Origin: Alphaproteobacteria bacterium
GTDB lineage: Bacteria > Pseudomonadota > Alphaproteobacteria > Micropepsales > Micropepsaceae
Assembly (NCBI GenBank): GCA_947467345.1
Contig: CANIHD010000015.1
Span: 1 to 64,000 of the forward strand
Direction: 5' to 3'
DNA length: 64,000 nt
Shown here: piece after piece, positions 37,275 through 44,385 of the stretch
How positions within the stretch are numbered: the stretch's first letter is position 1
How the letters are laid out: each line of letters starts with the position of its first letter
Made by a program: the position numbers and the translations under genes
Notes under the pieces: generated by a model
Told to the model about the DNA's origin: nothing
Seen by the model: the letters and a program-made list of their open reading frames with translations, nothing else
The model's database searches: none

Positions 37275-37299
37275 GGAACCATTACGGCGAAGATACGTT
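37275..37299 (+). promoter_or_regulatory. EcfG-type general stress promoter
   Basis: GGAAC-N16-CGTT matches the EcfG sigma consensus of alphaproteobacteria with the preferred spacer. It lies 73 bases before the start of the duplicated-domain secreted protein. Confidence 0.65.
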
Positions 37300-37372
37300 T
37301 CCTGGCTGACGCAATGTGACGGGCGCGAAAATATGCGTACCCCGAACGTGTGAAATCCAGGAGGACTCCCCC

Positions 37373-38266
37373 GTGAGAAAATCTCATTTCTTTTCCGCCG
37401 CAGCTTTTATCGGCGCGACATGTTCGATGGCCGCTCTGGCACAACCGGGCTATGGCCCGCCGGGCGGTCCGGGGCAAGGCGGTCCTGGTCCTTGGGATCG
37501 CATCGGTTCGGTGCAAATTGACAGCCGCCCCGACCGCGAAGTCGCCTACACGAATTTCGGCGGCAGCGTTGAACGCTTGGCGTTTCAAGCCAATGACGGC
37601 GACGTGACGTGCCGAAACATTTCGGTGCTGTTCGCCAATGGTCAATCGGCCGTGGTGTTCAACGGCACTTTGCAGCGCGGTCGTCAGACCGTGGTCGATA
37701 TTCCGGGTACGGCCCGCAATATTCGCCAGGTCGCTTTCAACTGCCGCGTGAATGGCCCGGCACGTCAAACCGATGTCGATATCGCCGCCGATGTCGGCCG
37801 CTATCGCGCGGAATGGCGCAACGGACCGAATTGGGAACGCCAATGGTCGCGCGTCTTCGCTTGGGCGAATGACCGCGACAACAATCGCGGCCCAGATCGT
37901 GGTCCGGATCGTGGTCCAGGACGTCCCGGACCGGGTAATGGACCTGGCGGTTGGATGCCGATCGGATCGGAACGTTTTGAAGGTCCGCGCGACCAAGAAA
38001 CGACCTATGCCGGCGCACGCGGCCAGGCCATCGAGACCGTTGGCATTCAGGCGATGGACAACGATGCGCGCTGTTCGCGCCTGACGGCGACGTTCGACAA
38101 CGGACGCACGACCGACCTCTATGTAAATCGCGGCGGCATTTTGAATCGCGGCCGCATGTATGAGGTCGATCTGCCCGGCAATCGCCGCAACCTCGAGCGG
38201 TTGGACATGACTTGCCGTGGCGAGCGCGGCCGCCCCGTCACCGTTCAAATTTCAGCCCATCGCTAA
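37373..38266 (+). CDS. Secreted protein with two similar beta domains, unknown function
   Basis: A 297-residue protein beginning at GTG 37373 after AGGAGGA; the earlier in-frame start at 37316 has no ribosome site. A signal peptide ends near MAALAQ. A Pro/Gly linker and a first domain (about 40-150) are followed by an Asp/Arg/Gly/Pro linker (RGPDRGPDRGPGRPGPG) and a second domain (about 185-297). The domains align: IGSVQIDSRPDRE/IGSERFEGPRDQE, LAFQANDGDVTCRNI/VGIQAMDNDARCSRL, LFANGQSA/TFDNGRTT, RNIRQVAFNCR/RNLERLDMTCR. Each keeps two cysteines. An internal duplication is clear. No family recognised. It is under an EcfG-like promoter. Confidence 0.75.
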   Translation: MRKSHFFSAAAFIGATCSMAALAQPGYGPPGGPGQGGPGPWDRIGSVQIDSRPDREVAYTNFGGSVERLAFQANDGDVTCRNISVLFANGQSAVVFNGTLQRGRQTVVDIPGTARNIRQVAFNCRVNGPARQTDVDIAADVGRYRAEWRNGPNWERQWSRVFAWANDRDNNRGPDRGPDRGPGRPGPGNGPGGWMPIGSERFEGPRDQETTYAGARGQAIETVGIQAMDNDARCSRLTATFDNGRTTDLYVNRGGILNRGRMYEVDLPGNRRNLERLDMTCRGERGRPVTVQISAHR

Positions 38267-38278
38267 TAGGAGCTGTCT

Positions 38279-38668
38279 ATGAAAGACCGCGATCCCATCA
38301 CAGACGACACCGACGTGTCGGATGACACGATTTTCACGGGGCCTACGAGTGTAGGCACAACGTCGAAACCGACTGTAGGCCACCGTCATTTTCATGACGC
38401 CCTGCATCCCGGCGGTATCCAGGGCGTGAAGACGACCATGGACACTGAAGGCTCGCTGGGCTCTCAAAGCGGTCCGCAGCCCAGCGGCGGCCGCACGGGA
38501 ATGGCCGAACATGTCGGCGCCGAAGATCGCTCCGGCCAGACCAGCCTCACAGACGAATTGTCTGGTGTTGAAATCGGCCATTTTGGCGAAGGCGGCACCG
38601 GCAAGCAGAATGGGCCCAAACCGAGCGGAGTTGCCCCCGCTACGCCACTTCGGATCGTTAAGCGCTGA
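38279..38668 (+). CDS. Hydrophilic, probably disordered stress-linked protein
   Basis: A 129-residue protein without cysteine, signal peptide or hydrophobic segment, rich in Gly, Thr, Ser and Asp (DTDVSDDTIFTGPTSVGTTS, GPQPSGGRTGMAEH, QNGPKPSGVAP). PQPSGG/PKPSGV-type motifs repeat. The composition suggests an intrinsically disordered cytosolic protein; no function is known. It starts 12 bases after the secreted protein gene and so is probably co-transcribed from the EcfG-like promoter. A terminator follows. Confidence 0.65.
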   Translation: MKDRDPITDDTDVSDDTIFTGPTSVGTTSKPTVGHRHFHDALHPGGIQGVKTTMDTEGSLGSQSGPQPSGGRTGMAEHVGAEDRSGQTSLTDELSGVEIGHFGEGGTGKQNGPKPSGVAPATPLRIVKR

Positions 38669-38693
38669 GTCGCGCCCAAGAGGCCCAGATCAG

Positions 38694-38732
38694 GAAGCCC
38701 GGTCGCCCCAAGCGATCGGGCTTCTTGCTTTT
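38694..38732 (+). terminator. Rho-independent terminator
   Basis: GAAGCCCGGTCGC-CCCAA-GCGATCGGGCTTC followed by TTGCTTTT, 26 bases after the upstream stop. Confidence 0.88.
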
Positions 38733-38853
38733 AGGAGTACTGCAACCCTCGCCATCGGGCGCGTGTATTTCAGGTTCTTGCATTTAAGGGGCGAGCTTCA
38801 TAGGTTCGCGCCGATTGGGGAGGCCCGCCCTTGAGGCTGCTTCCCTGGCCCTT

Positions 38854-38930
38854 GCAGTTGTAGCTCAGCTGGTTAGAGCGCCGGATTGTGGATCCGGAGG
38901 TCGGTGGTTCGAACCCACCCAACTGTACCA
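38854..38930 (+). tRNA. tRNA-His (GTG), alphaproteobacterial type
   Basis: This 77-base cloverleaf has anticodon loop TTGTGGA (GTG) and encoded CCA. The acceptor begins G1 opposite T72 and the discriminator is A73; the base before G1 is T, so no G-1 is encoded. That departs from the usual bacterial G-1:C73 but is the known pattern of many alphaproteobacteria. It borders the accessory segment that follows. Confidence 0.96.
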
Positions 38931-39028
38931 ATTGTTCATGACTGAATTCGGCAGCCAGACTTGGGACTTCGTCGCTACTTGACGTTGCGTCGCTATCGCC
39001 TGGGTAAAAGCTGTTAGTTCACCAAAGC

Positions 39029-40450
39029 TCAATCGCTCTGAACAGGATCACGGCGAGCAAGCATTTCCAGATACGCCGGTATAGTTTCATAGGTAGGGAT
39101 GGGATCGGTCTGTTCCGTGACCAGAGTTCCCGACCACAGAATATTTTTCGGATAGAAAGCTCGGCTCTCCCACTCGCCGCTTTGGAACGTCCAATGCGTT
39201 GCCTCTGGAAGGAGCGCATTGGGCAGCGCATAGCGCGCATATGGATTGTGGAACACCTCAAGTTCGGCGCACCAAGGCTCGTGCATTTGCGGCCAAATGG
39301 AAAGATATTCTTCGCTGGTCACGTCCATACAAAAGGGGACGCCGTCTAGCGCGCCAGGTGTCCAATCCGCAAATTTTCCGTATCGAACATAGCGTAGGTC
39401 ATGATTCGTCGCGCCACTCGACACAGCGACGCGATTAAGTTTGCTGAGTGTGCACGCATTGGTGAAAATTATGGCGGACAATTCAGCATGCCGGTCATCG
39501 CGAAAGAGTCCGGTAGGAAACTCTGTAGTTCCCTGAAGCTGATCTGCTTGAAGCACAACAGCTACGCGCTCGCCATTTACTTCGCTGATCTCAGCGCCCA
39601 GACCCGTAAGGTAGCCCATCAGAGCTTCTCGACTCCATATCATGGAGGCGGGCGCATGAAAGTCTGCCAACGCGAGTGCAAACGGTTGGCCGACGACATG
39701 TGGCAGTTGATCATAACGGCGCTGAAGTTTATTGCCGATCGTCTTGGCGAAGCGGAGCGCGGCCGAGCCGAAAAAGAGATCGATATTTTTTTGGGGTTGA
39801 AGCGTTGGAATCGCATTTACATGTTCGTAGCGAGCCGCCGGGTTGGCGGTCACTGCTTCAACCCAAGCACTCCCGCCTAGACGATTTTCAATTCGGAAAT
39901 CGGGATTTTCCTTCGGTTGGGTAACCAGCAAACCCTGCTCTCGAAAGCATGCCAAGAGTTGCGCTTCCCATAAGCGCGTATGGAAATTTCCGGTCTGGCA
40001 ATCTGATGCCCAGTTTCGGTCCGGTCGTGGAAGCGCGAGATAAAGCTGGTTGAGAAGCCAGCCGGCATTTCGATGACTTCTGCCACAGAACAATTTGAAT
40101 ATTTCGCTCGGCGATCGGTCGCCAAAATCATGCAAGGCCATTCGGCGTGGGGTGCCAGGTGGAACGGGTTCGCATGGCAAGCCTTCCCTAAGCTCTATTT
40201 CAGCTTTGTTCCGCGGAGCATCAATCGTCTGAATTCCTGCAGCCTCGCATGTGACAGTCCAAACATCGTCCACACGCCGTCGCATAACGACCACGCCATA
40301 GTCTCTTGTCTCACAGTGCAGCGTCACCGCCGCCCATCCATAACCGTCATCACTGCCCCACGCCTCCACCGGTGGGCGTTCGCCGAATCCATGGCCGCGA
40401 GGCAATGCAAGCGCGCAAATATCGAAAAGACCGTTATGCATCTGTCTCAT
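39029..40450 (-). CDS. Unknown protein with PD-(D/E)xK-like motif next to tRNA-His
   Basis: A 473-residue soluble protein with no signal or membrane segment. I recognise no family. Residues 155-205 hold a suggestive nuclease-like pattern: Glu162 in TRLWEAQLLACF, then PDF at 183-185 in KENPDFRIENR, then WVEAVTANP with Glu198. This mimics the E ... PD ... (D/E)xK order, but Lys is replaced by Val. The C-terminal half is mixed and without repeats (SKLNRVAVSSGA; FCMDVTSEEYLSIWPQ). The gene appears less G/C-rich than its neighbours and stands alone beside tRNA-His, a usual place for acquired DNA. Start is ATG 40450 or 40441. Confidence 0.6.
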   Translation of the reverse strand: MRQMHNGLFDICALALPRGHGFGERPPVEAWGSDDGYGWAAVTLHCETRDYGVVVMRRRVDDVWTVTCEAAGIQTIDAPRNKAEIELREGLPCEPVPPGTPRRMALHDFGDRSPSEIFKLFCGRSHRNAGWLLNQLYLALPRPDRNWASDCQTGNFHTRLWEAQLLACFREQGLLVTQPKENPDFRIENRLGGSAWVEAVTANPAARYEHVNAIPTLQPQKNIDLFFGSAALRFAKTIGNKLQRRYDQLPHVVGQPFALALADFHAPASMIWSREALMGYLTGLGAEISEVNGERVAVVLQADQLQGTTEFPTGLFRDDRHAELSAIIFTNACTLSKLNRVAVSSGATNHDLRYVRYGKFADWTPGALDGVPFCMDVTSEEYLSIWPQMHEPWCAELEVFHNPYARYALPNALLPEATHWTFQSGEWESRAFYPKNILWSGTLVTEQTDPIPTYETIPAYLEMLARRDPVQSD

Positions 40451-40513
40451 AAGGGCTTATTTCGCAGTATTAAGCTGCGGTGTCACGAGATCTCAGGTCG
40501 TCAGTTCGCCCCT

Positions 40514-40613
40514 TCACCCCCACATGAGATCGCAATTTCGCAAGGGCAGATCGCGGTAGCGTTTTCTGGTGATCTGGAAAATCCATCCACGATGCCCGAT
40601 TGCAGCGAGGTGC
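40514..40613 (-). pseudogene. Decayed copy of the 3' end of the molybdenum hydroxylase gene at 42058
   Basis: About 100 bases match the last 100 bases of the gene ending at 42058 at roughly 80% identity by eye, including the shared blocks GCAAGGGCAGATCGCGGTAG and GATGCCCGATTGCAGCGA. The copy still encodes TSLQSGI at one end and YRDLPLRN-DL-WG-stop at the other. A missing base near 40583 puts these in different frames. No upstream part of the gene is present. It is a relic of a past duplication or of a deleted paralogue. Confidence 0.75.
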
Positions 40614-40630
40614 GCCGCTCGCGCCTGGAC

Positions 40631-40655
40631 GGAACATTACCAAGCTAAGCCCGTT
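40631..40655 (+). promoter_or_regulatory. EcfG-type general stress promoter
   Basis: GGAAC-N16-CGTT, identical in spacing to the sites at 37275 and 40994, begins 81 bases before the 24-residue peptide gene and just beyond the hydroxylase relic. Confidence 0.65.
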
Positions 40656-40711
40656 AGATGAGCGCGCCTCTGTTCAAGGGGCCGAGAGAAATCGAACGAG
40701 GAACACACACC

Positions 40712-40786
40712 ATGAACAGCATCATCTATCTCGTCGGTCTTGTCGTCGTGGTTGGAGCCATCCTGTCATTTGTTGGGCTGAGGTAG
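40712..40786 (+). CDS. 24-residue single-pass membrane peptide
   Basis: ATG 40712 to TAG 40786 encodes MNSIIYLVGLVV, a short hydrophobic run, and a terminal LSFVGLR. One membrane helix fills almost the whole peptide. GAACGAGGAA upstream can serve as ribosome site. Nearly identical short peptides (MN-IIY-VGLVV ... LSF-GLR) recur in alphaproteobacteria, as I recall, usually annotated as hypothetical. The EcfG-like promoter upstream suggests stress induction. Function unknown. Confidence 0.7.
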   Translation: MNSIIYLVGLVVVVGAILSFVGLR

Positions 40787-41092
40787 TCTCCGGCACCACG
40801 ACCGCCGACCATCGAAAACTGCATCATCATTGTGGAGCGTTGCGACTGCGACGTAGCTGCAAGCTCTTGCGGTGTTCTAGCCTCTCCCCGTCACGCGTCC
40901 CCACGCATTTGCCTCACGTCACCAAGCATTTGCGTTTTTTCATCCGTTCAAATCGGCGCCGCATCTCTCCTTGCACAAAATTTTTGCAAATGAGGAACCG
41001 ACGCCTCGGCGGCTCGTTCGTGATTCACGATCCCATGGGAAATTTTCCTGGCGGTACGCCCACGCCGCGCACTTTCCAACAAAGGCACTCCG
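40787..41092. other. Intergenic stretch with an EcfG promoter only
   Basis: No gene is supported here. GCATTTGC occurs twice (near 40910 and 40925), and TTTTTGCAAATGAG precedes the EcfG site at 40994. No terminator with a T-run was seen after the 24-residue peptide gene. Confidence 0.5.
40994..41018 (+). promoter_or_regulatory. EcfG-type general stress promoter
   Basis: GGAAC-N16-CGTT lies 75 bases before the membrane protein gene at 41093. This is the third such site in 3.8 kb. Confidence 0.65.
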
Positions 41093-42004
41093 ATGGCCAA
41101 CGCGCCGGTTCTCACGCAAGTGATCGAATATGACATCGACAATTTCTCTTGGACGGCTGTGATCGCCGGCGCCCTGGTTGCCACGGCGACTATGGTCTTC
41201 CTGCTCGCGCTGGGCGCGGGGGTTGGCCTTTCCATTACCACCGCGTGGGAAGCGGATACGGGCACCGCGAAGACCATGCTGACCCTTGGCGCCATCTATT
41301 TTTTGGCGGTGCAGGCTTTCGGGTTCCTGATCGGCGGCTATCTGTCCGGCCGGTTGATCGGCCCATTATTGGAACGCCCGGCGGAGGAGCGCTTTCATTC
41401 CTTCGCGCATGGTTTGGCGACATGGGCGTTGTGCGTTGTTGCCACCGGGTTGCTCGTTACTGCTTCCGGCACGGTTCTCGGCGGCTCGGCGCTGAACGCA
41501 TCGGCGCAGGTCGGCGCCGCTGCCATTGAAAGCGAGACGGCTGGAGACGACATGAACGGTTACTGGGTTGATACGCTGTTTCGCCCCGATGCGGCGGCAC
41601 AGCTTACAGCAGCCCCAGCGTTCCAAGATCCGGCGAATCCGGTTGTCGGCGTAGCGCCCATCATGCCCCGAAACAATGACGCCGCGGGGGGAGAAGCCGG
41701 CCGGATTCTGACTATGGCCGCCGTGCCGGGCGACAAGCTTTCGCCGGCCGACCGCGGCCGCTTGGCCTCGCTGGTTTCAGAGGAAACTGGTCTGTCTACC
41801 GAACAATCCAGTCAACGCGTGGATACAATCGAGACGCAGATGGAGCAGCGCGCGCTCGCGGCCGCAGAGGCGGCGCGGCTGACCGCGCAATATATCGCGT
41901 TCTGGACGGCGCTCGCGCTGATCCTCGGCGCAGCGTGTGCGGCGGTGGGCGCACGATTGGGCCGCGAGATGGACGACGAGGCGCGCGGACTGGTTCGCGC
42001 CTAA
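41093..42004 (+). CDS. Integral membrane protein of unknown function
   Basis: A 303-residue protein with three N-terminal membrane segments: WTAVIAGALVATATMVFLLA, then a segment within TLGAIYFLAVQAFGFLIGGY, then ATWALCVVATGLLVTASG. A soluble loop of about 110 residues (150-260) follows, then a C-terminal helix (AFWTALALILGAACAAVGA). Gly-rich GAGVGL and GGYLSGRLIG mark the membrane part. Related proteins are annotated only as hypothetical or PhnA-like in rhizobia, from memory. The EcfG-like promoter suggests an envelope stress role. Confidence 0.7.
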   Translation: MANAPVLTQVIEYDIDNFSWTAVIAGALVATATMVFLLALGAGVGLSITTAWEADTGTAKTMLTLGAIYFLAVQAFGFLIGGYLSGRLIGPLLERPAEERFHSFAHGLATWALCVVATGLLVTASGTVLGGSALNASAQVGAAAIESETAGDDMNGYWVDTLFRPDAAAQLTAAPAFQDPANPVVGVAPIMPRNNDAAGGEAGRILTMAAVPGDKLSPADRGRLASLVSEETGLSTEQSSQRVDTIETQMEQRALAAAEAARLTAQYIAFWTALALILGAACAAVGARLGREMDDEARGLVRA

Positions 42005-42057
42005 GCTTAGATTTGAAGGGAAGCGAGCCCCGCCCTCATCGGTGGGGTTTTTCCCAT

Positions 42058-44385
42058 TCACCCCCATGTCAGATCATAATTGCGCAAGGGCAGATCGCGG
42101 TAGCGTTTGCCGGTGACCTGGAAAATGGCATCGGCGATGCCCGATTGCAGCGACGTGCCGCGATCATGGCCCATGCCGTCCAGCCAATGCTCCGACTTGA
42201 AGAAGTGAATGTTGAGCTCGGGCGGATGTTCATTGAGCCGTGAAAGGATGAAACGGTCGAAATTGTTTTCCTTCATGCGTCCGTCAACGACATTGCTCTC
42301 CTGATACATCGCGTCGTTCAAGAACCAGGTGTTCTGACCCTCTAACTGTTTCTTGACCGACAGCGGATTGATCAGGCTGAGGCCTTCGTCGTGCGCGATG
42401 TCGGTGCGTAAGAGGCGCACCTCGCCCTGCTTACTGATCGAGATCTTATGCACCTGCGCGCTGAAAGTGGCGTGGCCGTCGCCTTCCGCGCCGCGTTCTT
42501 CGAGCGCGATGACACGCACCGTGCCTTGCGGCAGCGGCGTGCCCCAGTTCGACATCTCGGCCGCCATGTCGAGTGCTTTGATCATGTCGTCCTTATAGAA
42601 AAGGTTGCCGCGCTGGATGAGTTCGCGGCGATAGAGATAGGGGTCTTTGCCGGCGGCGTGCGCCAGCTCGTCCATGAAGCTTTCGCGATAAAACGTTTGC
42701 GCCGGCGCGCCGACGCCGCGCCGCGTACCCACCGGAATATGAAACTTCGCGGTGTGGGTGGAGAAGCGGTAATTCGGCACGTAATACCGCGCGGCGATGT
42801 CGAACCCTGCGGCTGGACCAGGCGCATTCTGGTCCGCCGCCGTTCTTACCTCCATCGCGATGGGCCAGCCATCGGCGTCGAGCGCGGCGCGCAGGCGCGC
42901 AACGCCGATGGAGCGATAGGTCGTGTTGATGAAATCTTCCTCGCGCGTCCACAAAAGGTGTATGGGCGTGCCGCGATTTTTATTGGCGATGTACAGCGCC
43001 TGCTCCGCCTGCGGCCCGTTGCCGTTGCGCCCATATCCGCCGCCAAGATGGCAGAGATGAAGATAAACGCTGGTTTCCGGCAGGCCGGTAATTTGCGACG
43101 CGGAGTAGCGCGTTTCCTGCGGGCTTTGATCGCCGATCCAAATGTCGACGCGATCATCGGTGACCAGCACGGTGGCATTGCCCGGCTCCATGCGGGCGCG
43201 CGGCAGATACGGTACGGAATATGTCGCCTCCACCATGCGCGTGCCGCTGGCAAAGGCCGCGTCGCAATCGCCGATATTGGTACGCATGGTACCGGGCGCA
43301 TCCAGCGACGCCATCAGCGCGGCGCGAATCTTCGCCGTGTCCATGGCGGCGTTTTGCGGGGGGATGTCCCATTCGATAGGCATTTTGTCGATGGCGGTTT
43401 TGGCCTGATACCAGGTGTCGGCGAGCACAGCGACGCCGCCGCCGAACACACGGCCTCTGATGAGAGCCGGATTGGGAATGGGAAACGGAATCGCCAAGAT
43501 GACGCCCGGCTCGCCGCGGACTTTTTCGAAATCATAGCTCTTCACCGAACCGCCATAGACGGGACACGATTTCACCGCAGCCCATTTCATGCCGGGCAAG
43601 CGCACGTCGATGCCATAAATCGTCTTGCCCCTTACCTTGTGGGGCACATCGAGATTTTTTTGCTCGGTGCCCATCAGAGTCCATTCCGATGGCGGCTTGA
43701 TGCGTATGGCTTTCGGATTTGGATGCGGCGTCTGCCCGGCAAGCGCGGCAACTGCGCCGTAGGTAGTCGTGCGTCCTGTGGGCTTATGTGTGACGACGCT
43801 GTTGGCGGAACTCACCTCCGCCACCGGTACGTTCCAAACCTTCGCCGCAGCAAGCAGCAAACGCTCGCGCGCTTCGGCGCCGGCAAGCTGCAGATAATAG
43901 CGCCCGTCTTTCACCGACGCCGCCGCGTTAGTCCGCATCCGCCGATAGAGGCTATCCGGAATTCCGGTGACGCCGGTCTTAGAGCGGTCGAGAAAATCGG
44001 GGGAGCCACCGCCATTCGGATCTCTGCCGCCATTGCCCATGACGTTGAGCGTCCAATCCGGCGCCATCTCGCGCGCGTCGCGATTGACCGACGCGTATTC
44101 AGGGCGAACTTTCGCCCAGTCGCATTGCAGCTCTTCGCACACCATCATGGGGTTCGACGTCCACACGCCTTGTCCGATTTCCGTTTGCGCAATGCGGATG
44201 GTTACCGTCTCGTCGGGCGCGACGACAACCCAGGCATTGACCTCAGGGTTCGCCGTTGGCTTGGTCCATACCGCGCCTTCCGGATTGATGATTTGCCCCG
44301 CGGCCTTTGTCGGGATCCAGAACCCGATAATGAGCGCGCCTGATGCAGCGAGTATGTCGCGCCGGGAAAGCTTTGCGGCGGCCAT
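42058..44385 (-). CDS. Xanthine dehydrogenase family molybdopterin-binding subunit (IorB-like), atypical active site
   Basis: A 775-residue large subunit of a two-component molybdenum hydroxylase of the isoquinoline 1-oxidoreductase type. A Tat signal (KLSRRDILAASGALIIGF) sends it to the periplasm. Family segments include TEIGQGVWTSNPMMVCEEL and EPGNATVLV. Where the family has the catalytic glutamate as GVGE before the final helix, this protein reads WLDGMGHDRGTSLQSGIADA, placing His at the Glu position. The start at 44385 gives the Tat signal; the extension to 44592 does not. It follows the 2Fe-2S subunit by 47 bases. Confidence 0.88.
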   Translation of the reverse strand: MAAAKLSRRDILAASGALIIGFWIPTKAAGQIINPEGAVWTKPTANPEVNAWVVVAPDETVTIRIAQTEIGQGVWTSNPMMVCEELQCDWAKVRPEYASVNRDAREMAPDWTLNVMGNGGRDPNGGGSPDFLDRSKTGVTGIPDSLYRRMRTNAAASVKDGRYYLQLAGAEARERLLLAAAKVWNVPVAEVSSANSVVTHKPTGRTTTYGAVAALAGQTPHPNPKAIRIKPPSEWTLMGTEQKNLDVPHKVRGKTIYGIDVRLPGMKWAAVKSCPVYGGSVKSYDFEKVRGEPGVILAIPFPIPNPALIRGRVFGGGVAVLADTWYQAKTAIDKMPIEWDIPPQNAAMDTAKIRAALMASLDAPGTMRTNIGDCDAAFASGTRMVEATYSVPYLPRARMEPGNATVLVTDDRVDIWIGDQSPQETRYSASQITGLPETSVYLHLCHLGGGYGRNGNGPQAEQALYIANKNRGTPIHLLWTREEDFINTTYRSIGVARLRAALDADGWPIAMEVRTAADQNAPGPAAGFDIAARYYVPNYRFSTHTAKFHIPVGTRRGVGAPAQTFYRESFMDELAHAAGKDPYLYRRELIQRGNLFYKDDMIKALDMAAEMSNWGTPLPQGTVRVIALEERGAEGDGHATFSAQVHKISISKQGEVRLLRTDIAHDEGLSLINPLSVKKQLEGQNTWFLNDAMYQESNVVDGRMKENNFDRFILSRLNEHPPELNIHFFKSEHWLDGMGHDRGTSLQSGIADAIFQVTGKRYRDLPLRNYDLTWG

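What the first reader, a model, noticed from the sequence alone, without database searches (positions are those of the whole stretch)
37275..41018. Three EcfG-type general stress promoters with identical 16-base spacers in 3.8 kb
GGAAC-N16-CGTT occurs at 37275, 40631 and 40994. Each lies 73-81 bases ahead of a gene start: a secreted duplicated-domain protein (with a disordered partner), a 24-residue membrane peptide and a membrane protein. All four products lack known functions. Together they look like a small general-stress cluster interrupted by tRNA-His and an accessory gene.
Basis: partly seen in the sequence, partly recalled or inferred. Interest (0 to 1): 0.6.

Follow-up and report, generated by a model that had tools for sequence, protein, structure and literature searches.

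The report
Stress promoters driving a membrane micropeptide pair
The three promoter sites look real and are shared with related bacteria; two of them serve a widespread but unannotated 24-residue membrane peptide and the membrane protein encoded beside it, yet the sigma factor, anti-sigma factor and response regulator that normally control such promoters are missing from this genome assembly.

Summary
All three GGAAC-N16-CGTT sites exist, are intergenic and correctly oriented. Genome-wide the bare pattern is not enriched (38 hits, 63 for the reversed control), but 13 of 38 hits are intergenic and all 13 point at a gene within 160 bases; none of 31 N18-19 control hits does. Homologues of the secreted and membrane proteins in other genera keep the site, so these are EcfG-class promoters. 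The "cluster" reading is half right. The 24-residue peptide (40712) and the membrane protein (41093) form a conserved pair: 16 of 80 peptide loci have the membrane gene directly downstream, and 9 of 11 plasmid-borne membrane genes have a 24-25-residue hydrophobic peptide directly upstream. In Alphaproteobacteria 25 of 64 peptide loci carry the exact site, 46 of 64 with at most one mismatch (about 1.5 expected). Neither peptide nor membrane protein reaches a Pfam or NCBIfam cut-off. The secreted protein (DUF2541-like) is a separate target; the accessory gene is a PD-T7-1-type defence gene. EcfG, NepR and PhyR are absent from this 96%-complete assembly, and the locus holding them in congeners is contiguous without them: either they lie in the unassembled part or the regulon is read otherwise. 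Expression and function are untested.

The parts
37275..37299 (+). EcfG-class promoter, GGAAC-N16-CGTT, 73 bases before GTG 37373
   Evidence: Exact match. An exact GGAAC-N16/17-CGTT lies upstream of the homologue in G004, G015, G023, G003 and G006; none in G007, which lacks the GSR regulators
37373..38266 (+). Secreted protein of two similar beta domains, DUF2541-like
   Evidence: Three of 12 aligned homologues match PF10807 (best 2.4e-11); the window protein itself is below cut-off. Two beta domains, pLDDT 76
38279..38668 (+). Low-complexity partner ORF, 12 bases after the previous gene, probably co-transcribed
   Evidence: No Pfam or NCBIfam match; no convincing homologue near the relatives' secreted gene
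40631..40655 (+). EcfG-class promoter, GGAAC-N16-CGTT, 56 bases before ATG 40712
   Evidence: Exact match. 25 of 64 alphaproteobacterial peptide loci have the exact site, at spacing 16 (18 loci) and 17 (7 loci); 0 of 14 non-alpha loci
40712..40786 (+). 24-residue membrane peptide MNSIIYLVGLVVVVGAILSFVGLR
   Evidence: 80 of 80 pattern loci end at 22-24 codons (77 at 24), although the pattern fixes only the first 12 codons. pN/pS 0.27/0.65 in codons 13-24
40994..41018 (+). EcfG-class promoter, GGAAC-N16-CGTT, 74 bases before ATG 41093
   Evidence: Exact match. Exact site near the start of the homologue (or of its peptide) in G005, G021 and G010
41093..42004 (+). Membrane protein, long hydrophobic helices and a soluble loop; partner gene of the peptide
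   Evidence: Pairing; no family above cut-off; helical model pLDDT 80, pTM 0.69; no PDB match with E<=0.001

Best explanation
The three sites are genuine ECF15/EcfG-class promoters of a general stress regulon. Two of them serve a conserved two-gene membrane module: a single-helix peptide of about 24 residues and a roughly 300-residue helical membrane protein. Where both occur side by side in other species they look like one transcription unit, often behind one EcfG-type promoter; here they lie 306 bases apart and each has its own. The likely mechanism, inferred, is that on stress the sigma factor turns on both genes, the peptide inserts into the inner membrane and acts as a small partner or regulator of the membrane protein, and together they adjust membrane state, comparable in kind to E. 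coli YohP. The third site drives a separate secreted DUF2541-like protein. The tRNA-His and the PD-T7-1-type defence gene in between are unrelated. Shown by computation: the promoter class, its conservation and the gene pairing. Inferred: expression, stress dependence, physical interaction, effect on the membrane. The sigma factor most likely exists but lies in the few per cent of the genome not assembled.
For: 13/38 motif hits intergenic and oriented vs 0/31 for a spacing control. The congener with the GSR genes, G004, shows 31/71 and relatives without them 1/15 each. Homologues keep the site. The peptide is class-wide with the site at spacing 16-17. Pairing found in both directions: 16/80 peptide loci have the membrane gene directly downstream; 9/11 plasmid membrane genes have a hydrophobic 24-25-residue ORF 2-41 bases upstream, against 15/190 background genes, p about 6e-9. 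Other promoter hits in this genome precede genes of the same kinds as in G004 (PRC barrel, DUF1328-like, TonB-like) and an HWE histidine kinase followed by a single-domain response regulator. A PRC-barrel gene is also an EcfG target in Sphingomonas melonis, where target motifs concentrate within 100 bp of the start (PMC6599016).
Against: No NepR, PhyR or EcfG orthologue in the 96.3%-complete assembly, and the locus that carries them in congeners is contiguous without them. 18 of 64 alphaproteobacterial peptide loci have no site within one mismatch, so other promoters serve the peptide too. The peptide occurs without the membrane gene nearby in most of the 80 loci, and in Beta- and Gammaproteobacteria without the site. 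No direct evidence of transcription, translation or interaction.
Confidence: 0.72

Rival explanations
1. The sites are chance matches of a short, gapped pattern; the genes use other promoters.
For: The bare pattern is not enriched genome-wide (38 vs 63 reversed control); a cluster of three has P about 0.05.
Against: Intergenic and oriented in 13/38 vs 0/31; conserved upstream of homologues in other genera; spacing peak at 16-17 across the class.
Confidence: 0.04
2. The genome has lost EcfG, NepR and PhyR, and the promoters are a decaying remnant read by nothing.
For: Regulators not found; the locus is contiguous without them; fewer promoter hits than in the congener G004 (13 vs 31).
Against: Thirteen perfect, well-placed sites would have to persist without selection; an HWE kinase gene, of a kinase family that feeds PhyR, still carries the promoter.
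Confidence: 0.15
3. The promoters work but another ECF sigma factor reads them after loss of EcfG.
For: Functional-looking promoters with no EcfG found; two other ECF sigma genes were seen (C14, C9).
Against: Both are only 31% identical to EcfG over the match; the C14 one sits beside a ChrR-cupin protein, a group that from general knowledge uses a different promoter.
Confidence: 0.12
4. The peptide and the membrane protein are merely neighbours in the same regulon, without joint function.
For: Many peptide loci lack the membrane gene nearby; in the window they are 306 bases apart with separate promoters.
Against: Pairing with short gaps in several orders, and two different-looking peptide types in the same place upstream of the same membrane family.
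Confidence: 0.25

Closest known systems
EcfG (ECF15) general stress response regulon of Alphaproteobacteria (PhyR-NepR-EcfG)
   Same: GGAAC-N16/17-CGTT, mostly within about 100 bp of the start; targets include small membrane proteins and PRC-barrel proteins
   Different: The PhyR, NepR and EcfG genes are not found in this assembly
E. coli YohP (27 residues, PF25659)
   Same: Single-helix membrane peptide of similar length; YohP rises in stationary phase and changes membrane composition and potential (PMC12719787)
   Different: The window peptide scores 14.2 against a cut-off of 27; its own sequence pattern MNxII(Y/W)xVG...GLR; its gene neighbour is a membrane protein gene not reported for YohP
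DUF2541 (PF10807)
   Same: Domain of some of the secreted protein's homologues
   Different: Two copies in tandem; the window protein itself is below the cut-off
PD-T7-1 anti-phage defence protein
   Same: The gene at 39029-40450 matches over nearly its whole length (2.8e-60)
   Different: Not part of the stress promoters; a neighbour only

Membership tests
EcfG-class (ECF15) promoter | -35 GGAAC and -10 CGTT at spacing 16-17 | tested here: met
   Three exact N16 sites
EcfG-class (ECF15) promoter | Intergenic, oriented, close to a start codon, beyond chance | tested here: met
   13/38 vs 0/31 spacing control
EcfG-class (ECF15) promoter | Conserved upstream of homologous genes | tested here: met
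EcfG-class (ECF15) promoter | Genome encodes EcfG with NepR and PhyR | tested here: not met
   None found; locus contiguous without them. The assembly is 96.3% complete, so absence from the organism is not proven; the label here is for promoter class on sequence grounds, not for proven EcfG control
EcfG-class (ECF15) promoter | Transcription depends on EcfG and stress | not testable with these tools
   Needs expression data
YohP (PF25659) | Score above the curated cut-off | tested here: not met
   14.2 vs 27 bits; 8 of 28 relatives match weakly, best E 0.0035
DUF2541 (PF10807) | Score above the curated cut-off | tested here: inconclusive
   Window protein 14.8 vs 28.2 bits; three homologues match, best 2.4e-11
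PD-T7-1 defence protein | Near full-length profile match | tested here: met
   Residues 47-445 to profile 47-447 of 452, E 2.8e-60; activity not tested

The most novel reading that the evidence does not exclude
The organism has lost the whole PhyR-NepR-EcfG switch but keeps a working EcfG-type regulon that a different sigma factor now reads, with the micropeptide and membrane protein pair among its outputs.
Probability: 0.12. Interest if true: 0.8.

Novelty: new member of a known kind. Interest (0 to 1): 0.55.

Why it matters
The promoters are of a known class, but they lead to a membrane peptide of 24 residues that is spread over Alphaproteobacteria and some other Proteobacteria, is too short for ordinary annotation, reaches no curated family cut-off, and is often encoded directly before one uncharacterised membrane protein. 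Many targets of the general stress response are of unknown function; a conserved peptide-plus-membrane-protein pair in tractable laboratory genera is directly testable. The apparent absence of the regulator in a genome that keeps the promoters is a clean question for a complete genome.

Tried and rejected
Counting the pattern genome-wide as a test: uninformative, because the reversed control has more hits. NepR candidate at G000:C1:6748 (17 bits): below cut-off, rejected. The idea that an assembly gap at the usual locus hides the regulators: rejected, because both flanks lie on one contig; a gap elsewhere remains possible. The two ECF sigma genes found, taken as EcfG: rejected at 31% identity. 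The search for related loci with the membrane protein found nothing, while genome search did. tblastn of the 24-residue peptide in plasmids found nothing, although peptide ORFs are present there by position, so BLAST is too weak for this length. Foldseek gave no useful match for the membrane protein, and for the secreted protein only low TM-scores, to beta-rich proteins such as XepA. Literature: no paper in the held library contains the peptide sequences. Gene calls in fetched loci come from my own hexamer script, not a published gene finder.

Full report
Observation. The pattern is short, and genome-wide it is not enriched: 38 hits against 63 for the same pattern read backwards. The test that carries weight is position. 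I fetched the DNA around all 38 hits, called genes with a hexamer model trained on the window and other stretches of this genome, and found 13 hits intergenic, all 13 pointing at a gene within 160 bases. With the spacing changed to 18-19, 0 of the 31 hits examined (of 44) were so placed; Fisher p=0.0003. A congener that carries the general stress genes, G004, gave 31 of 71; two relatives in which none were found, G011 and G007, gave 1 of 15 examined each, with doubtful gene models.

Footprinting. Homologues of the secreted protein have an exact GGAAC-N16/17-CGTT close upstream in G004, G015, G023, G003 and G006, and none in G007, which lacks NepR and PhyR. Homologues of the membrane protein have one in G005, G021 and G010. 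In the G038 locus the exact match is some 260 bases or more before the likely start and I give it no weight.

The peptide. A degenerate DNA pattern for the first 12 codons of the 24-residue peptide was scanned over the genome collection; the scan stopped at its limit and returned 80 loci. All 80 reading frames end at 22 or 24 codons (77 at 24), which the pattern does not impose. In codons 13-24, also free of the pattern, pN is 0.27 and pS 0.65. A Shine-Dalgarno-like 4-mer precedes 69 of 78. Of 64 alphaproteobacterial loci 25 have the exact promoter within 150 bases, at spacing 16 (18 loci) or 17 (7 loci); of the other spacings from 10 to 23 only one locus matches, at 22. With at most one mismatch 46 have it, against about 1.5 in shuffles; of 14 non-alpha loci none has it exactly. 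A few loci assigned to odd phyla (Opitutus, Solirubrobacterales) are metagenome bins and may be misbinned.

The pair. Clustering the neighbours showed one family that recurs: homologues of the window's membrane protein directly downstream of the peptide. A closer search found 16 of 80. Fifteen have gaps of -1 to 50 bases between peptide stop and membrane-protein start; for L279 my start choice overlaps the peptide and is probably wrong. They include Devosia, Agrobacterium, Brucella, Rhizobium, Methylocystis, Paracoccus and Rhizomicrobium electricum. The reverse test was independent: 11 plasmid records chosen only by the membrane protein. Nine have a hydrophobic ORF of 24-25 codons ending 2-41 bases before it; two (Devosia) are the IIYLVG type and seven are a second type, MGRGILLWLLGIPLPIVILLVLFMR and the like. 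A closely similar criterion is met by 15 of 190 background genes. Five of seven further homologues in relatives also have such a peptide, of either type. None of these short ORFs appears in the plasmid gene tables, which are known to be incomplete. In the window the two genes are 306 bases apart and each has its own promoter.

Proteins. Neither peptide type nor the membrane protein reaches a Pfam or NCBIfam cut-off. The membrane protein is predicted as long helices with a soluble loop (pLDDT 80) without a PDB match. The secreted protein has two beta domains and belongs near DUF2541. The accessory gene at 39029-40450 matches PD-T7-1 at 2.8e-60.

The missing regulator. NepR (PF18557) and PhyR (PF22233) give no match over cut-off in this genome, while most congeners have both. 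The best EcfG matches are two other ECF factors at 31% identity, where four congeners have orthologues at 75% or more of the G004 protein. In G004 the cassette lies between a MacB/fusion-protein pair and a small gene (DUF883-type in the window's genome), followed further on by a fadE-type acyl-CoA dehydrogenase; here the same flanks lie on one contig with an Rrf2 regulator, a TonB receptor and a TauE-type gene in between (the last three named from sequence, not by a family search). So the cassette is not at its usual place. It may have moved to the unassembled part (about 4%), or been lost. An HWE kinase gene with a receiver-domain gene behind it still carries the promoter, which favours a working system. 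Across relatives, genomes with NepR have a higher ratio of pattern to reversed control than those without (Mann-Whitney p=0.01).

Literature. The consensus, the position within about 100 bases and a PRC-barrel target agree with Sphingomonas melonis (PMC6599016). YohP, a 27-residue E. coli peptide linked to stationary phase, membrane fluidity and membrane potential (PMC12719787), is the nearest functional analogue; membership was tested and not met. No paper in the held library prints the peptide sequences, and a Sinorhizobium small-protein study did not mention it in the main text by the terms I tried. That is not proof that it is undescribed.

Judgement. Promoter class: near certain on sequence grounds. 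Gene pair: well supported. Joint membrane function: plausible, untested. Regulator: open.

Noticed in passing
39029-40450 (-): The 'accessory gene' matches the anti-phage defence protein PD-T7-1 (E 2.8e-60), next to tRNA-His.
   Followed up: partly
40509-40613 and 42053-42158: A copy of the 3' end of the molybdopterin oxidoreductase gene (91 of 106 aligned columns identical) lies just before the peptide promoter, so direct repeats flank the peptide and membrane genes.
   Followed up: partly
L394, L395, L397, L398, L402-L404, L163-L165: A second micropeptide type (MGRGILLWLLGIPLPIVILLVLFMR and similar) sits in the same place before the membrane protein; no Pfam or NCBIfam match.
   Followed up: partly
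L272:4057-6809 (G000:C5): HWE histidine kinase with PAS and GAF domains, then a single-domain response regulator, behind an EcfG-type promoter.
   Followed up: partly
L282, L309, L315, L340: In Polaromonas the 24-residue peptide follows a recJ-like gene and lacks the EcfG site, so other promoters serve it there.
   Followed up: no
L268:5162-5869 (G001:C59): A congener, 63% complete, has an EcfG-like sigma gene (55% identity) without NepR or PhyR beside it.
   Followed up: no
38279-38668 (+): Low-complexity ORF after the secreted gene; no convincing homologue near the relatives' copies.
   Followed up: partly
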